Assembly: GCF_009769755.1 (NCBI RefSeq)
Contig: NZ_SDWJ01000002.1
Span: 372,001-436,000 of the forward strand
DNA from: Sphingorhabdus profundilacus
Lineage (GTDB): Bacteria > Pseudomonadota > Alphaproteobacteria > Sphingomonadales > Sphingomonadaceae
Direction: 5' to 3'
DNA: 64,000 nucleotides
The position numbers and the translations under genes are program-made. The notes below the pieces were generated by a model, which was given only the letters and a program-made list of their open reading frames with translations, was not told the origin of the DNA and searched no databases. This document shows, piece by piece, positions 48,280-53,780 of this stretch (within the stretch, counting starts at the first letter, position 1; every line of letters starts with the position of its first letter).

Positions 48280-48366
48280 GCGGCCATGGCGGAATTGGTA
48301 GACGCGCAACGTTGAGGTCGTTGTGGGCGAAAGCCCGTGGAAGTTCGAGTCTTCTTGGCCGCACCA
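48280..48366 (+). tRNA. tRNA-Leu(GAG)
   Basis: An 87-nt leucine tRNA including encoded CCA. The acceptor stem is GCGGCCA/TGGCCGC, the anticodon stem CAACG/CGTTG with loop TTGAGGT (anticodon GAG at 48314-48316), and the long variable arm TGGGCGAAAGCCCG and T-arm GTTCGAGTC are present. It reads CUC and CUU. An integrase remnant follows. Confidence 0.95.
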
Positions 48367-48538
48367 GACAGCCGTTTTTGGCTGTTTTCTGTAATTCCCA
48401 AACATCTTGCAAAACCATTGGTTTTCTGCCAGTTATTGTGCCTATCCAGCGTTAGGCATTCCCTTTTGTTCTTCCCTAGCCTGTCTCTTTTGGGGGTATA
48501 TTTGGGGGCATATCGCGAAATCGAACTTTGGGGGATTT

Positions 48539-48853
48539 ATGCCACTAACAGTTTTGCAGATTGCCGCAATCAACCCGCTCGACAAGTCTTACCGCAAGGC
48601 AGACGAAAAGGGGCTTTATCTCGAAGTCTTCCCGAACGGCTCGAAGCTATGGCGCTTCAAATACCGGATAGATGGCAAGGAAAAGCGCTTGGCGCTTGGG
48701 GCCTATCCCGAAACGACTTTGCAGGATGCAAGAGACCAACGCGATGCACGCCGGAAACAAGTTATGGACGGTATAGACCCAGCGCGCGAAAAACGGCTCA
48801 ACCGGCTGGAACGCAAGGTCTGTTCCCCGTCAGCACCACGGTTTGGGACTTAG
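48539..48853 (+). pseudogene. Truncated tyrosine recombinase (P4-type integrase N-terminus)
   Basis: The first 104 codons of a phage P4-like integrase: the arm-type DNA-binding domain with LTVLQIAAINPLDKSYRKADEKGLYLEV, KLWRFKYRIDGKEKRLALGAYPE and LQDARDQRDARRKQV. The frame then ends in unrelated residues, and the core-binding and catalytic domains (R..H..R..Y) are missing. Full proteins are about 400 residues. Its place 170 bp after a tRNA-Leu end marks an old integration site. Confidence 0.88.
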
Positions 48854-49285: not shown

Positions 49286-51391
49286 ATGGCAACGAGTGCG
49301 GGCATTCAGGTGGAAGAGCGGGGGGCGCTGGTTGCGCGCGCTTCGCTTTTTGGCCCATTTGCGCTTACCGATCAGGGCGGAGCACCTATCACCCTTTCCA
49401 ATCGCCGGGCCCGTGCGGTGTTGGCTATGCTGTGCTTGGAGCCCGACCAGCCTGTCGCGCGCGAACAGCTTACCCGGCTGCTATGGCCCGGACGGTTTGA
49501 GGCTCAGGCAAAGGGGAGCTTGCGGCAATGCCTGCTCGAACTGGGCAAAGCGCTTGAGCCTTTAGAGCAGCCGCTGCTTGTCGTAACGCGCGAGCGGGTT
49601 ATGCTTACCAATATGCGTTTGCGGACCGATCTGTCGGATCTTGAAGCGGCGCTGATGGCGGGGCGCGATCAGGAGGCGATCGCGCTCTTTGATATGATCG
49701 GGACAAGGCGTCTGCTCGACGATCTGAATGTCGGCGATGCTTTTGCCGATTGGCTGGAGGCGCGGCGGAAACAAGTTTCGCTGCGGCTGCAGGCTTTGGT
49801 CGAGCGGGCGCTGGATGACATTGGCGATACGGCGCTGCGCAAACGCCTGCTCGGCGCCTGGGCGGTGCAGCAGCCGTCTGTTGCGCCCGCTGCCATGCCG
49901 ATACCGACCGACATAAAGACTCGGATTGCCGTTTTGCCTTTCAAATCTTTGGGCAGTGCCGATGGGCCGGATTATTTCACCGACGGGATGGTCGATGAGT
50001 TGATCACGACGTTGGGTCAGGTACCCCAATTGCTGGTCGCGGGCAGGATATCGTCCTTTCATTTCCGCGATAGCCCCTTCACGCCCACACAGATCGCCGG
50101 GGAATTGGGGGTCACCCATCTGATCGAGGGATCGGTGCAGCGGCAGGGCGAGCAGGTGCGCATCCATGTGCATCTGATTGCGGGTGACACAGGCTTTGAA
50201 CTTTGGGGGCAGCGCTTTGATGGGAGCCTCGATTCGATTTTCCGATTGCAGGAGGATGTCGCGCAAGCCGTGACGCGGGCGCTGGCCGAAGCGCTAGACC
50301 TCGATATGGCTGCACCGCTGGTGCGCACCATGACCGGCAGCAAAAAGGCCTTTGATCTCTATTTGCAGGGTCGGGCCCTCAATGCCCGATTGTTCGGCGA
50401 TGGCGTTCTCGACAATGCCGTCGAGCTGCTGGAGCAGGCCGTCGCGATTGATCCGCAATTTGCCGAAGCTTGGGTCGAACTGGCCGAGGTGCATCACAAT
50501 ATTTCGGTCTGGACCCAATGTCTGGACCGCAATGCAGAGGCGCTCCGCATGGCGGAGTGCGCCCACAAGGCAATCGCCCTTGCTCCCCAGCTTGGCTATC
50601 CGCGGGCGCTTCTTGCCATCTATGAATGGACGCGAAACAACATAGTCGTGGCAATGGATCTGGTGTTCGAAGCCTATCGCCGCGAACCGACCCATCCCGG
50701 GGTCGCCATGCGCGTCGGCTCCTTTCTGCTTTACATCGGGCGCACCCGCGATGCGGCTCCCTATGTTATGGCCGCGATTGAACAAGATCCGGTCGACACG
50801 CGCAAATTTGCCCTGCTGATCGCGGTGCATATGCATCGCGGCGAGTTTAAAGCGGCTGTGCAGGTCGGGCAGCGCTCGGTTGATCTAGGCTGGCCGTCGG
50901 TTCAGTTAGGGCTGGCGATGGCAGCAACGGGCCGACATGACTTGGCGGTAGAACAATATCAGCTGACCAAAAAATTAGTCAACACCATCATCCTACCTCC
51001 GGTCGGCAGCGGCCCAATGACGGACGAAGCGATGGATGCGTATTGGCTGGTTGCGGCAAAGGGCGTGTGCAGCGGGCAGGAAGCCGATCGCCTGATCTAT
51101 CATCAGCTTTTGAATATGATGTTCGCCACGCTGCATGACAAAGCGGATATGGCGATCATCGCACCTGCCATTATGACGGGCCATGTAGAATTGGTGTTCA
51201 ATGGCCTTGGGCTTCGCCTGACACCGGCCAATATGGTGTGGCTGGTTATGCTGTGGATGGACATCGATCCCGTCCGCCAGATCTGGCAGCATCCCGAATT
51301 CATCCCCTTTGCCCAGCGTATCGGCCTGGCAGCCGCATGGGACAAATATGGCTGGCCTGATTTGTTGCCGCAGCCCAGCAACCGCGTTTAG
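49286..51391 (+). CDS. SARP-like winged-helix regulator fused to TolB-like and TPR domains
   Basis: A 701-residue protein. Residues about 13-195 resemble a SARP/BTAD module: a winged helix (ASLFGPFALTDQGG, LSNRRARAVLAMLCLEPDQPVAREQLTRLLW) then a helical bacterial transcriptional activation part. Residues about 208-340 are a TolB-N/FlgO-like domain (RIAVLPFKSLGSADGPDYF, GMVDELITTLGQ, HLIEGSVQRQGEQVRIHVHLI). TPR repeats follow (about 360-560). There is no membrane segment, unlike CadC. It is a one-component cytoplasmic regulator, with three 11-bp-spaced repeats just after its stop. Confidence 0.82.
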   Translation: MATSAGIQVEERGALVARASLFGPFALTDQGGAPITLSNRRARAVLAMLCLEPDQPVAREQLTRLLWPGRFEAQAKGSLRQCLLELGKALEPLEQPLLVVTRERVMLTNMRLRTDLSDLEAALMAGRDQEAIALFDMIGTRRLLDDLNVGDAFADWLEARRKQVSLRLQALVERALDDIGDTALRKRLLGAWAVQQPSVAPAAMPIPTDIKTRIAVLPFKSLGSADGPDYFTDGMVDELITTLGQVPQLLVAGRISSFHFRDSPFTPTQIAGELGVTHLIEGSVQRQGEQVRIHVHLIAGDTGFELWGQRFDGSLDSIFRLQEDVAQAVTRALAEALDLDMAAPLVRTMTGSKKAFDLYLQGRALNARLFGDGVLDNAVELLEQAVAIDPQFAEAWVELAEVHHNISVWTQCLDRNAEALRMAECAHKAIALAPQLGYPRALLAIYEWTRNNIVVAMDLVFEAYRREPTHPGVAMRVGSFLLYIGRTRDAAPYVMAAIEQDPVDTRKFALLIAVHMHRGEFKAAVQVGQRSVDLGWPSVQLGLAMAATGRHDLAVEQYQLTKKLVNTIILPPVGSGPMTDEAMDAYWLVAAKGVCSGQEADRLIYHQLLNMMFATLHDKADMAIIAPAIMTGHVELVFNGLGLRLTPANMVWLVMLWMDIDPVRQIWQHPEFIPFAQRIGLAAAWDKYGWPDLLPQPSNRV

Positions 51392-51398
51392 AGCCGTT

Positions 51399-51430
51399 TT
51401 GACGCTTTATTGACGCTTTATTGACGATCC
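51399..51430 (+). promoter_or_regulatory. Three TTGACG repeats with exact 11-bp period
   Basis: TTGACG begins at 51399, 51410 and 51421; the first two units are identical over 11 bp (TTGACGCTTTA). One-turn spacing is the arrangement bound by SARP/OmpR-type winged-helix regulators. It lies between the SARP-like gene and the first secreted-protein gene. Confidence 0.75.
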
Positions 51431-51441
51431 GGTGGATTGAC

Positions 51442-51460
51442 CGATGACGCTACGTCATCG
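51442..51460. promoter_or_regulatory. Palindrome CGATGACG-CTA-CGTCATCG
   Basis: A perfect 8-bp-arm dyad, 12 bp after the TTGACG array and 164 bp before the next start codon. A second operator or a transcript hairpin. Confidence 0.55.
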
Positions 51461-51503
51461 CAAGATAGCGTTAAGGGATCGCAGACAATTTAATGGATTT
51501 TGG

Positions 51504-51591
51504 GTGAACCGGCACAGTCGGTTTTGCCAAGAGGAGAGCCGTGCCTTTGGCCTCGACCGCGCGGCACTGTGGGTTTGAACGAGCCCCGTCA
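51504..51591 (+). promoter_or_regulatory. Duplicated 88-nt leader, copy A
   Basis: Matches copy B (52195-52282) at 67 of 88 positions without gaps. A GTGCC/GGCAC stem is conserved in both, while the sequence between the arms is the most variable part, as expected of a folded RNA. Ends 32 bp before the first secreted-protein start. Confidence 0.65.
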
Positions 51592-51623
51592 ATGCGGCGG
51601 GACGCAATATGGGGAGTATGAAA

Positions 51624-52076
51624 ATGAAATTGATGAAAAATGTGATGATCGCAACGGCTATGCTGATTTCGGCACCGATGGCATTGCCAACGGCCGCAAT
51701 AGCGCAGGAATTTCCGCTGGTAGCCGGTGACTATTCCGATGTTGGCGGCATCTTTGTCAAAGACGGCGGGACGCTGAAATATGCGATGCATCTGGCGGGC
51801 GACTGGAAGAAGAATCAGGAATTTGCGAAATCGCAGGGCTGGATCACCGACTACAAGATCTACGTCAATGAAAACCCCCGCGATGGTGAGCCCAATGTCT
51901 ATCTGGTAACAACATTCGCCAGCCTACCCGATGCCGCCGAAACCGAACGGCGTGGCAAGGTTTATGAAGCCTGGGTCAAGACGACCAATGCACAACGCGA
52001 CGCGGCATCAGGAAATCGGGCTGAATATCGCACGATAAAGAGTAGCATGCTCTTACGCGAATATAAGGTCCGCTAA
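51624..52076 (+). CDS. Secreted alpha/beta-barrel-like protein, copy 1
   Basis: A 150-residue protein. The ATG at 51624 is chosen because GGGGAG lies 7 nt upstream; two earlier ATGs are too close to or before it. Signal peptide is about 1-27, ending TAAIAQ. The mature part has HLAGDWKKNQEFAKSQGWITDYKIYVN, RDGEPNVYLVTTFASLPDAAE and RTIKSSMLLREYKVR. The spacing of WKK, KSQG, Y and GEP is shared with copy 2, and predicted strand-helix order suggests a dimeric alpha/beta barrel (inference). No family name recognised. Confidence 0.75.
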   Translation: MKLMKNVMIATAMLISAPMALPTAAIAQEFPLVAGDYSDVGGIFVKDGGTLKYAMHLAGDWKKNQEFAKSQGWITDYKIYVNENPRDGEPNVYLVTTFASLPDAAETERRGKVYEAWVKTTNAQRDAASGNRAEYRTIKSSMLLREYKVR

Positions 52077-52086
52077 GGCGCGATCG

Positions 52087-52133
52087 GGTCAATTCGCTCG
52101 GCCTGCAAAAATGCCGTGCCGGGCGAATTGACC
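52087..52133 (+). terminator. Long hairpin after secreted-protein copy 1
   Basis: GGTCAATTCGC and GCGAATTGACC are perfect 11-bp arms, and pairing extends inward (CGGC/GCCG with one wobble). It lies 10 bp after the stop. No T-tract, so possibly an attenuator or mRNA-stabilising hairpin. Confidence 0.55.
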
Positions 52134-52194
52134 ATGGTCGCCATAACTTCGCTGCATGGCGATTGGCGACTTTAGACAGATTTTGAACTTCAGG

Positions 52195-52282
52195 GCGAAC
52201 TGGACAAGCCTGTTTTGCGAAGAGGCGAGCTGTGCCTTCGGCGCACGCGTCGCGGCACCGTGAGTTTGAACGAGCCTCGTCA
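52195..52282 (+). promoter_or_regulatory. Duplicated 88-nt leader, copy B
   Basis: Copy of the leader at 51504-51591. The blocks GTTTTGC, AAGAGG, GTGCCTT, CGCGGCAC and GTTTGAACGAGCC are kept. Ends 30 bp before the second secreted-protein start, almost the same distance as copy A. Confidence 0.65.
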
Positions 52283-52312
52283 TTTTGACCTGGCCAATTT
52301 GGGAGAATGATG

Positions 52313-52759
52313 ATGAAAATGATGAAAAGCCTTTACGTAGGGGCAGCGTTGTTGGTTGCCGCCACCATGGCTGTTCCTGCCGCCGCGCAAGAATCGCCGC
52401 TCAAGCGCGGCAGTGTCTGGGTTGCCAGCCGGATCGACGTTCTGCCCGGACAGAACCCTGCCTATACCGATTATCTGGCGACCCAATGGAAAAAGGAAAT
52501 GGAGTGGGGCAAGTCCCAGGGCCATATCCTCAGCTATCGGATAATGAGCACCAACCACGCACGTACCGGCGAGCCCGATATTATCCTGCTGATCGAATAT
52601 AAGGATTATGCAAGTGCGGCTGAGCGGGACGCCATCAGCAAACGCTTCAATGAAGCCATGAACACCGACAGATTGAAGACTGCTGCCGCAAACCTTGAGC
52701 GGGAAAAAATCCGCACGTCGATGGGCTCGACCGAATATCAGGAATGGATTGTGAGATAA
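52313..52759 (+). CDS. Secreted alpha/beta-barrel-like protein, copy 2
   Basis: A 148-residue paralogue of the previous gene. GGGAGA 6 nt before the ATG at 52313 decides among four closely spaced ATGs. Signal peptide about 1-25, ending VPAAAQ. Mature segments are GSVWVASRIDVLPG, YLATQWKKEMEWGKSQGHILSYRI, RTGEPDIILLIEYKDY and SMGSTEYQEWIVR. Similarity to copy 1 is moderate, but the shared leader and layout show that gene and upstream region were duplicated as one unit. Confidence 0.75.
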   Translation: MKMMKSLYVGAALLVAATMAVPAAAQESPLKRGSVWVASRIDVLPGQNPAYTDYLATQWKKEMEWGKSQGHILSYRIMSTNHARTGEPDIILLIEYKDYASAAERDAISKRFNEAMNTDRLKTAAANLEREKIRTSMGSTEYQEWIVR

Positions 52760-52777
52760 GCGACCCGTTGCACGACC

Positions 52778-53215
52778 ATGGCGGGCGGCATCCTCCCCAG
52801 TGTGCCCCCGCCAATCCCTATTTCCTCAATCGATGCGGAGGCACCTGTGGCTGTCATCGACGATGTTGCCCGTGATTTCACTGCGATGCTCCGGCTCGAC
52901 CAGTTCGAGGCAGCAGGCGAGAAATTCTGGGCAATAGACGTGAAAAGCGCGGAACCTGCGGCCTTGTCCCAAGACATTCCCGCGCTTGTATCCGGCAGGG
53001 AAGCGGCGCTCCGAAAGACCAGAGCACGGTTTGCCGAGGCTGACATCGACGACCTACGCATCGATGGCCCCTTTGTCACCGGCGACCAGTTCGCGCTGTT
53101 CCTCGATATGCTGATCACCGACCCGGCGACGGGCAAGACGCAACCTTTCGCCGAAATCGCCATTTTTACCGTCCGCGACGGGCGCATCATCGAGGAACGA
53201 TTTTTCTATGACTGA
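52778..53215 (+). CDS. SnoaL-like (NTF2 fold) domain protein
   Basis: A 145-residue protein with the SnoaL-type order: helix ARDFTAMLRLDQFEAAGEKFWA, GREAALRKTRARF, a strand pair DLRIDGPFVTGDQFALFLDMLITD and the last strands FAEIAIFTVRDGRIIEERFFYD. Such folds act as small hydrolases, isomerases or binding proteins; no specific active site is identifiable. No signal peptide. It starts 18 bp after the second secreted-protein gene and overlaps the permease fragment by 8 bp, so it is probably co-transcribed. Confidence 0.75.
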   Translation: MAGGILPSVPPPIPISSIDAEAPVAVIDDVARDFTAMLRLDQFEAAGEKFWAIDVKSAEPAALSQDIPALVSGREAALRKTRARFAEADIDDLRIDGPFVTGDQFALFLDMLITDPATGKTQPFAEIAIFTVRDGRIIEERFFYD

Positions 53216-53780
53216 AGCCGCAAGTCCGCCCCGCGTGGTCGGCACGTTTGGCACGGTGATGCTCAGCCTCAACTCGGTGATCGGCGCGGGCATCTTTGCC
53301 CTGCCAGCCGTGCTCTATGCCGCAACTGGCAATTTTTCCCCATGGATGTTCCTGATCTTTGGACTGCTTCAAAGCTTTAATGTGCTCGTGCTCGCGCGCC
53401 TTGCGACGATGTTCGTAGCCTCAGGCGGTGTTCAGCTTTATGCCCAGTCTGCATTCGGGCCAATTGCCGGGTTTCTGGTTGGCTGGTTGATGGTTCTTGC
53501 GGGAGCAGCGGGGCGCGGAGCGGCGCTTTCGGTGCTGGTTGACTATTTTGCGGTGTTCTTGCCGGCGCTGGCCGATCCGTTGGCAAAACAGCTGTCGGTG
53601 CTGCTGCTGATTGCTGCGCTGTGCGGTCTGACGCTGGCGGGAATGCGCTATGCGATGAACAGTCTCGTGGTCGGGACCGTGTTCAAGCTGGCTCCGATTG
53701 CTGTGTTGTGCTTGATTGCCTTCGCGTCAGGGGGCGTTGCGGTAAGTTCTACCTTGCCGAGCATTGGCGAGTTTGATTAG
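53208..53780 (+). pseudogene. Truncated APC-family amino acid permease
   Basis: Only the first 190 residues of a transporter of normally 420-450. The start matches APC proteins (TFGTVMLSLNSVIGAGIFALPAVLYAATG, then GGVQLYAQSAFGPIAGFLVGWLMVLAGAAGRGAA). It breaks off after about five membrane segments at a stop just before the dyad and tRNA-like junction near 53798-53880. Probably inactive; loss of the 3' part likely happened at the element boundary. Confidence 0.82.

What the first reader, a model, noticed from the sequence alone, without database searches (positions are those of the whole stretch)
49286..53215. Candidate new regulatory/secretion cassette: SARP-TolB-TPR regulator, 11-bp iterons, two secreted paralogues
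The sequence shows a cytoplasmic regulator with an unusual order (SARP-like wHTH, TolB/FlgO-like domain, TPR). It is followed by three TTGACG repeats at exact 11-bp spacing, then two secreted paralogues and a SnoaL-like protein. One-turn direct repeats are the known target type of SARP/OmpR-type winged helices. The inference is that this regulator controls the secreted proteins. I know of no described system with this composition.
Basis: partly seen in the sequence, partly recalled or inferred. Interest (0 to 1): 0.8.

Follow-up and report, generated by a model that had tools for sequence, protein, structure and literature searches.

The report
Regulator-operator cassette for secreted proteins
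A DNA-binding sensor protein sits beside a promoter marked by short repeats one helical turn apart, and comparison of related genomes indicates that the repeats are its landing site for controlling secreted proteins and transporters whose job is still unknown.

Summary
Three TTGACG units at exact 11-bp spacing (51399, 51410, 51421) follow the 701-aa regulator gene. They belong to a conserved promoter: two or three 11-bp units, TTG 15-16 bp after the start of the last unit (40 of 42 operators), then a -10-like CA after a 17-18-bp spacer (38 of those 40). In 296 Sphingomonadales genomes the full pattern occurs in 13, all among the 15 with a full-length regulator and none among the other 281. Where regulator and target are unlinked, or an inserted gene separates them, the repeats stay with secreted-protein or transporter genes. 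The regulator is an OmpR/SARP-like winged helix on a soluble CadC-like sensor with TPRs; the BTA domain of true SARPs was not recognised. The secreted paralogues are predicted alpha+beta-barrel proteins (weak fold matches). MFS transporters and a SnoaL protein often accompany them. Best reading: a one-component activator with a dedicated operator and a small regulon. Binding, direction of control, ligand and role are untested. My literature searches (open-licence papers) found no description. New variant of a known kind.

The parts
49286..51391 (+). Regulator, 701 aa: winged helix (about 17-107), helical linker (115-195), CadC-like alpha/beta part (about 212-314), TPR helices; no membrane helix
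51399..51431 (+). Operator: three 11-bp direct repeats of TTGACG
51437..51442 (+). -35-like TTGACC, 16 bp after the start of the last repeat
   Evidence: position conserved; promoter activity inferred
51461..51466 (+). -10-like CAAGAT, 18-bp spacer
   Evidence: position conserved; promoter activity inferred
51618..52076 (+). SEC1, secreted protein (ATG at 51609 or 51618)
52307..52759 (+). SEC2, secreted paralogue, predicted dimeric alpha+beta-barrel fold; the SEC member most often found with the regulator in the first set of loci
52778..53215 (+). SnoaL-like protein, downstream in 19 of 28 close regulator loci
53208..53780 (+). 190-aa N-terminal part of an APC-type permease, overlapping the SnoaL stop; truncated relative to the family
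   Evidence: matches profile 2-165 of 427

Best explanation
A one-component transcriptional activator with a dedicated operator. The cytoplasmic regulator senses something, probably a small molecule, with its CadC-like alpha/beta plus TPR half. Its OmpR/SARP-type winged helices bind side by side, one per 11-bp TTGACG unit, just upstream of a weak promoter (TTGACC, 18 bp, CAAGAT), and promote transcription of the secreted barrel-fold proteins and the SnoaL protein; in relatives, of HpaX-like or AmpG/FptX-like MFS transporters and small-molecule enzymes as well. Shown by comparison: the promoter architecture, its co-occurrence with the regulator, and that it stays with target genes when these are unlinked. 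Inferred: physical binding, activation rather than repression, a ligand, and a role in capturing, importing and processing an outside compound (this last at low confidence).
For: 11-bp TGACG pairs: 51 in 28 of 53 loci, no other spacing above 16 pairs except 22 bp, which follows from 11. In an order-wide sample, 12 of 14 full-length regulator loci besides the window have the 11-bp pair within 350 bp of the stop; other spacings at most 4, shuffles at most 1 (10 of 12 without two loci already in the first set). Full pattern in 13 of 296 genomes, all among the 15 with the regulator, 0 of 281 others, reversed control 0. L050/L051: repeats lie beyond an inserted divergent gene, before the MFS-SEC operon. 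Unlinked targets: G142 SEC1 homologue, G164 SEC1 homologue, G192 AmpG-like MFS. SEC1 homologues in regulator-less genomes (L099, L100, L101, L102) have no 11-bp TGACG pair. Fixed spacing to -35 and -10.
Against: No binding or expression data. G186 has a regulator (40% identity) with neither linked repeats nor a SEC1 homologue. One unlinked full site (G142 C2:39421) has no clear target. The full pattern was refined on linked sites, and genomes are not independent. The shorter pattern TTGACGN5TTGACG alone is not specific: 31 hits against 9 in the reversed control over 14 genomes. The ligand and role rest on neighbours only.
Confidence: 0.8

Rival explanations
1. The regulator binds the repeats but represses the operon; a ligand relieves repression.
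For: A site close to a promoter can serve either way; nothing here measures direction.
Against: The repeats lie upstream of the -35, not over the -10 or start, and the promoter looks weak with an 18-bp spacer, as expected for an activator. Described SARPs are activators (PMC10936776, passages).
Confidence: 0.12
2. The repeats are the site of another factor; the regulator is only a genetic neighbour.
For: Tandem 11-bp repeats are used by other OmpR-type regulators too (recalled).
Against: 0 of 281 genomes without the regulator have the full pattern; four SEC1 loci in regulator-less genomes lack the repeats; the repeats are present when regulator and target are on different contigs (G142).
Confidence: 0.05
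3. Same regulator-operator mechanism, but the regulon serves export, defence or cell-cell interaction rather than uptake and processing of a compound.
For: Secreted proteins come first in many loci; MFS proteins can export as well as import; SnoaL and barrel folds also occur in biosynthesis (MupZ, FasU among fold hits).
Against: The MFS genes resemble uptake families (HpaX/galactonate, AmpG, RhtX/FptX), though below curated cut-offs; no biosynthetic core gene was seen among the genes scanned.
Confidence: 0.3
4. Chance or non-regulatory repeats such as iterons or a recombination site.
For: The cassette sits near a truncated integrase and a tRNA gene.
Against: Conservation next to regulators of 38-62% identity, fixed distance to -35 and -10, placement before target genes.
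Confidence: 0.01

Closest known systems
Large SARP activators of Streptomyces (AfsR, PimR)
   Same: OmpR-type winged helix at the N-terminus, TPR at the C-terminus (AfsR), direct repeats at 11 bp; [quoted passage not shown]
   Different: No BTA domain recognised and no NOD hit in Pfam; repeat sequence TTGACG; last tandem repeat lies upstream of the -35, whereas SARP 3' repeats lie 8 bp from the -10; proteobacterial host; targets are secreted and transport genes
CadC / HilA regulators
   Same: Winged helix followed by an alpha/beta plus TPR part; CadC periplasmic domain is among the top Foldseek hits, TM 0.60-0.62 by target length, 14-16% identity
   Different: No membrane helix, unlike CadC (recalled); NCBIfam HilA/EilA model scores 23.6 against a cut-off of 589, CadC 17.6 against 400
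Dimeric alpha+beta-barrel proteins (NIPSNAP, IsdG, ABM, MupZ)
   Same: Predicted fold of SEC2
   Different: Secreted; no Pfam family above cut-off; no PDB sequence match; best Foldseek E 1.1e-3, none at or below 0.001

Membership tests
SARP | N-terminal OmpR-type winged helix | tested here: met
   Trans_reg_C in 13 of 19 N-termini at E 0.05 or better, the window protein at 22.3 bits, below the 26.2 cut-off; EmbR best PDB hit, E 8e-5
SARP | Bacterial transcriptional activation (BTA) domain behind it | tested here: inconclusive
   BTAD in 0 of 19 N-termini; 3 of 29 whole proteins match BTAD, place not shown; the model has helices at 115-195
SARP | Target promoters with 11- or 22-bp direct repeats | tested here: met
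   criterion from PMC10936776
SARP | 3' repeat 8 bp from the -10 element | tested here: not met
   The last tandem unit is followed by the -35 and an 18-bp spacer. An extra TGACG about 16 bp before the -10 occurs in many but not all Sphingomonadales loci
CadC/HilA type | Winged helix plus CadC-like sensor with TPR | tested here: met
CadC/HilA type | Score above the curated HilA/EilA or CadC model cut-off | tested here: not met
   23.6 of 589 and 17.6 of 400 bits
CadC type | Transmembrane helix | tested here: not met
   Highest 19-residue mean hydropathy 1.40
Dimeric alpha+beta-barrel superfamily (SEC2) | Ferredoxin-like barrel fold | tested here: inconclusive
   AlphaFold pLDDT 84; top Foldseek hits all of this fold with probability near 1, but best E 1.1e-3 and TM 0.5-0.6 by target length
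SnoaL-like | Curated profile match | tested here: met
   PF20409, 49.0 bits, cut-off 24.1
Regulator-operator pair | Physical binding | not testable with these tools
   needs gel shift or footprint

The most novel reading that the evidence does not exclude
An undescribed chemical-sensing system of Sphingomonadales that reaches into Gammaproteobacteria: a soluble CadC-like sensor on a SARP-like DNA-binding head commands a small, partly scattered regulon. Secreted barrel proteins capture or convert an outside aromatic or polyketide-like compound, MFS transporters import it, and SnoaL, VOC, SDR or intradiol-dioxygenase-type enzymes process it, an imported product being the inducer.
Probability: 0.25. 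Interest if true: 0.75.

Novelty: new variant of a known kind. Interest (0 to 1): 0.6.

Why it matters
Proteins related to this sensor half are common (27 of 61 genomes searched), and my searches found no described operator for this branch. Here a branch comes with a readable operator, so its regulon can be predicted from sequence and its ligand sought with a reporter. It also gives a handle on a family of secreted barrel-fold proteins without a Pfam assignment, and shows SARP-like operator logic outside actinomycetes with another sensor and another promoter position.

Tried and rejected
Chance repeats: rejected. Wider regulon in this genome: one full site only. The looser TGACGN6TGACG gives 11 hits here (2 are this site) against 1 in the reversed control; the other 9 have unlike spacers and were not followed.

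Plasmid carriage: tblastn of SEC2 gives one distant match (Persicobacter, 28%), SEC1 none.

Structured leader RNA: leaders share sequence with complementary arms (GCAGACA/TGTCTGC) in many loci, and 18 of 19 fold z-scores are negative, 5 of them below -2. But RNAalifold gives only 4 pairs on 20 rows, and pair counts on 10 chosen rows do not exceed shuffles (85 and 79 of 500 reach the observed cells paired and covariation score). Rfam: 3 matches, best E 0.32, all far below gathering. Not claimed.

SARP membership: not filed, because the operator position differs and no BTA domain was recognised.

Rows dropped. From the 50 loci: L071-L073 (another winged helix; sensor half 53-54% identical) and the weak or partial matches L077-L093 and L095-L098. 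L053-L055 are near-identical, as are L056 and L075. L094 holds only 86 residues of the regulator. The 42 operators leave out L054, L055, L056, L075, L146 and L150 as repeats of others; units were counted loosely there (the first unit of L076 is TTGCTG).

Literature: only open-licence PMC papers were searched. Listings seen: 0 papers; 7; 4; 12 of 18; 10 of 54, all with the 10-letter word only; 8 of 27; 1. Passages seen: PMC10936776, PMC5930380, PMC10972967.
Full report
WHAT IS THERE. The window lies in a 2.9-Mb genome; the closest named relatives of the regulator are mostly Sphingomonadales. At 49286-51391 is a 701-aa regulator. Three TTGACG units start at 51399, 51410 and 51421, 7 bases behind its stop codon. 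Then come SEC1 (start 51609 or 51618, to 52076), SEC2 (52307-52759), a SnoaL-like gene (52778-53215) and a 190-aa N-terminal part of an APC permease (53208-53780) that overlaps the SnoaL stop by 8 bp.

THE REGULATOR. The N-terminus is a winged helix: Trans_reg_C matches 13 of 19 N-terminal relatives, the window protein at 22.3 bits, below the cut-off of 26.2. A profile of those 19 finds EmbR best among solved structures (E 8e-5), then ToxR (E 0.03). Residues 115-195 are helical in the AlphaFold model (mean pLDDT 86) but no BTA domain is recognised there (0 of 19). The rest is an alpha/beta part plus TPR helices; Foldseek lists CadC's periplasmic domain among its top hits (3ly7, TM by target 0.62, 16% identity) beside generic TPR proteins. 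There is no membrane helix. So this is the CadC/HilA layout with a SARP-like head, not a new order. Of 61 relatives, 27 have some match, but only 3 (G000, G031, G018) have an orthologue at 62% identity or more.

THE CASSETTE TRAVELS TOGETHER. One search gave 50 loci. I kept 28 regulator loci with the same DNA-binding head or a close fragment: L049-L070, L074-L076, L094, the window and G031 (L104). A SEC-family gene lies downstream in 22 of 28 (L063 and L074 are weak matches) and the SnoaL gene in 19 of 28. Of the six without SEC, L060 and L062 end just behind or inside an MFS gene, and L065, L066, L068 and L094 are records labelled Gammaproteobacteria, Xanthomonas or Wenzhouxiangella. Companions are MFS transporters, HpaX/galactonate-like (a cluster of 13 genes) and AmpG/FptX-like (7), a protocatechuate-dioxygenase-like protein (6), DUF418 proteins, and in some loci VOC, SDR, sulfotransferase and SMP-30 proteins (all NCBIfam transporter and dioxygenase scores are below curated cut-offs). 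Compared with G031, homology starts 85 bp before the regulator and stops 2 bp behind the SnoaL gene; G031 lacks SEC1.

THE REPEATS BEHAVE AS AN OPERATOR. Over 53 loci there are 51 TGACG pairs at 11 bp, in 28 loci; 31 at 22 bp (a consequence), and at most 16 at any other spacing from 6 to 30. All 28 close loci have the array, three of them (L062, L067, L070) with one TTCACG unit. In 18 aligned loci, with one dominant letter at nearly each position, the core reads ATTGACGCTTTATTGACGCTTTATTGACG while the sequence upstream is not conserved. In L050 and L051 a divergent beta-lactamase-like gene lies behind the regulator, and the repeats are beyond it, directly before the MFS-SEC operon.

UNSELECTED SAMPLE. 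Of 296 genomes drawn across the order, 19 have a hit to the N-terminal 200 residues. Fifteen of these, this genome included, have a full-length regulator (38-57% identity for the other 14); four (G115, G267, G293, G303) match in the N-terminus only. Of the 14 besides the window, 12 have a TGACG pair at exactly 11 bp within 350 bp of the stop; other spacings reach at most 4, and 300 first-order Markov shuffles at most 1. Two of the 14 repeat loci of the first set, so 10 of 12 are new. The full pattern TTGACGN5TTGACGN(9,10)TTGAC is in 13 of 296 genomes, all among the 15, none among the other 281; reversed control 0. The hypergeometric figure is 6e-21, but genomes are related and the pattern was refined on linked sites, so it is a guide only; the absence elsewhere is not built in. 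In the 61 relatives the exact 16-mer TGACGCTTTATTGACG is found in exactly the 3 genomes with an orthologue. The shorter TTGACGN5TTGACG is not specific: 31 hits against 9 reversed in 14 genomes.

UNLINKED TARGETS. Of the 15 full sites, 11 are next to the regulator and 4 are not. G142 has its regulator on contig C3 without repeats; its only SEC1 match is on C2 (60% identity) with the repeats 178 bp before the start codon. G164 has, besides a linked site, a SEC1 homologue (65%) on C1 with repeats, followed by a 466-aa APC-type permease. G192 has repeats 341 bp before an AmpG-like MFS, 37% identical to the cassette's. The fourth, G142 C2:39421, has no clear target and no CA at the -10 position. 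A looser site in G164 (C11), without the TTGAC, precedes a third SEC homologue, 47% identical to that of L074. Conversely, SEC1 homologues in genomes without a regulator orthologue (L099, L100, L101, L102) have no 11-bp TGACG pair; L101 shows only 346 bp upstream, and L103 starts inside the gene, so it could not be tested.

PROMOTER GEOMETRY. I lined up 42 operators, 22 with three units and 20 with two (loosely counted). TTG stands 15 or 16 bp after the start of the last unit in 40 of 42; L066 and L198 are the exceptions. Among 32 Sphingomonadales rows 30 read TTGAC; the 8 gammaproteobacterial rows do not. CA follows that hexamer after 18 bp in 33 and 17 bp in 5 of 40; among the 32 rows CA is at 18 in 29, the next best offset having 10. 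I read this as -35 TTGACS, 18 bp, -10 CATTCT-like. In the window these are 51437-51442 and 51461-51466. The array then lies at about -74 to -47, upstream of the -35 (inferred numbering). Described SARP operators have their 3' repeat 8 bp from the -10, and the afs box of AfsR is centred at -29.5 (PMC10936776, passages); PimR's three-repeat operator, like this one, does not overlap the -35 (PMC5930380, passages).

MECHANISM, SHOWN AND INFERRED. Shown by comparison: a conserved promoter with two or three tandem sites, tied to this regulator, in front of secreted-protein and transporter genes. Inferred: one winged helix per unit, activation from just upstream of the -35, and a ligand for the CadC-like half. 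SEC2 is predicted to have the dimeric alpha+beta-barrel fold (pLDDT 84; top Foldseek hits 2od6, 2op5 and IsdG, with NIPSNAP and MupZ further down, best E 1.1e-3, none at 0.001 or below). With SnoaL, permeases and ring-cleavage-type enzymes as companions, uptake and processing of an outside compound is my preferred role, at low confidence.

EXCEPTIONS. G186 has a 40%-identical regulator without linked repeats and without a SEC1 match; its one short-pattern hit lies elsewhere and was not followed. G160 has the repeats before another apparently secreted protein that SEC1 does not detect. In this genome the stretch behind the repeats, with the leader, recurs before SEC2 without the 11-bp array (local score 164, best of 200 shuffles 44), so whether SEC2 depends on the same promoter or on its own is open.

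VERDICT. It is a new variant of a known kind: an OmpR/SARP-like head with 11-bp operators on a soluble CadC-like sensor, with a readable regulon. Binding, direction and ligand remain to be tested.

Noticed in passing
window 48280-48366 and 48407-48853: tRNA-Leu (GAG) followed by a 148-aa tyrosine-integrase fragment with an Arm-DNA-bind_3 domain, just upstream of the cassette: an island scar is likely. No second copy of the tRNA 3' end (15 bases or more) lies in the window.
   Followed up: partly
window 51459-51602 and matching leaders in relatives: Transcript leaders share sequence with complementary arms (GCAGACA/TGTCTGC in many loci). Folding is mildly better than shuffled in most, but covariation is not supported and Rfam has no family above gathering.
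   Followed up: partly
window 51431-51640 and 52122-52328: The promoter-proximal stretch and leader before SEC1 recur before SEC2, a tandem duplication that left out the 11-bp repeats; a long inverted repeat (about 52088-52133, by eye) lies at its left end.
   Followed up: partly
window 53208-53780: APC permease reduced to its N-terminal 190 aa, in the place where relatives such as L059 have an MFS gene overlapping the SnoaL stop.
   Followed up: partly
L071-L073: Regulators with the same sensor half (53-54% identity) but a different winged helix, a natural head swap; no 11-bp TGACG pair behind them. L071 and L073 have a minus-strand pair about 2 kb upstream.
   Followed up: partly
G060 (L006): At least 18 proteins related to the TolB/CadC-TPR half in one 2.2-Mb genome.
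   Followed up: no
L065 10106 and 10684; L094 1306 and 1884: Two operators each: one behind the regulator before a 123-aa apparently secreted protein, one before a sulfotransferase gene, so several promoters per regulon.
   Followed up: partly
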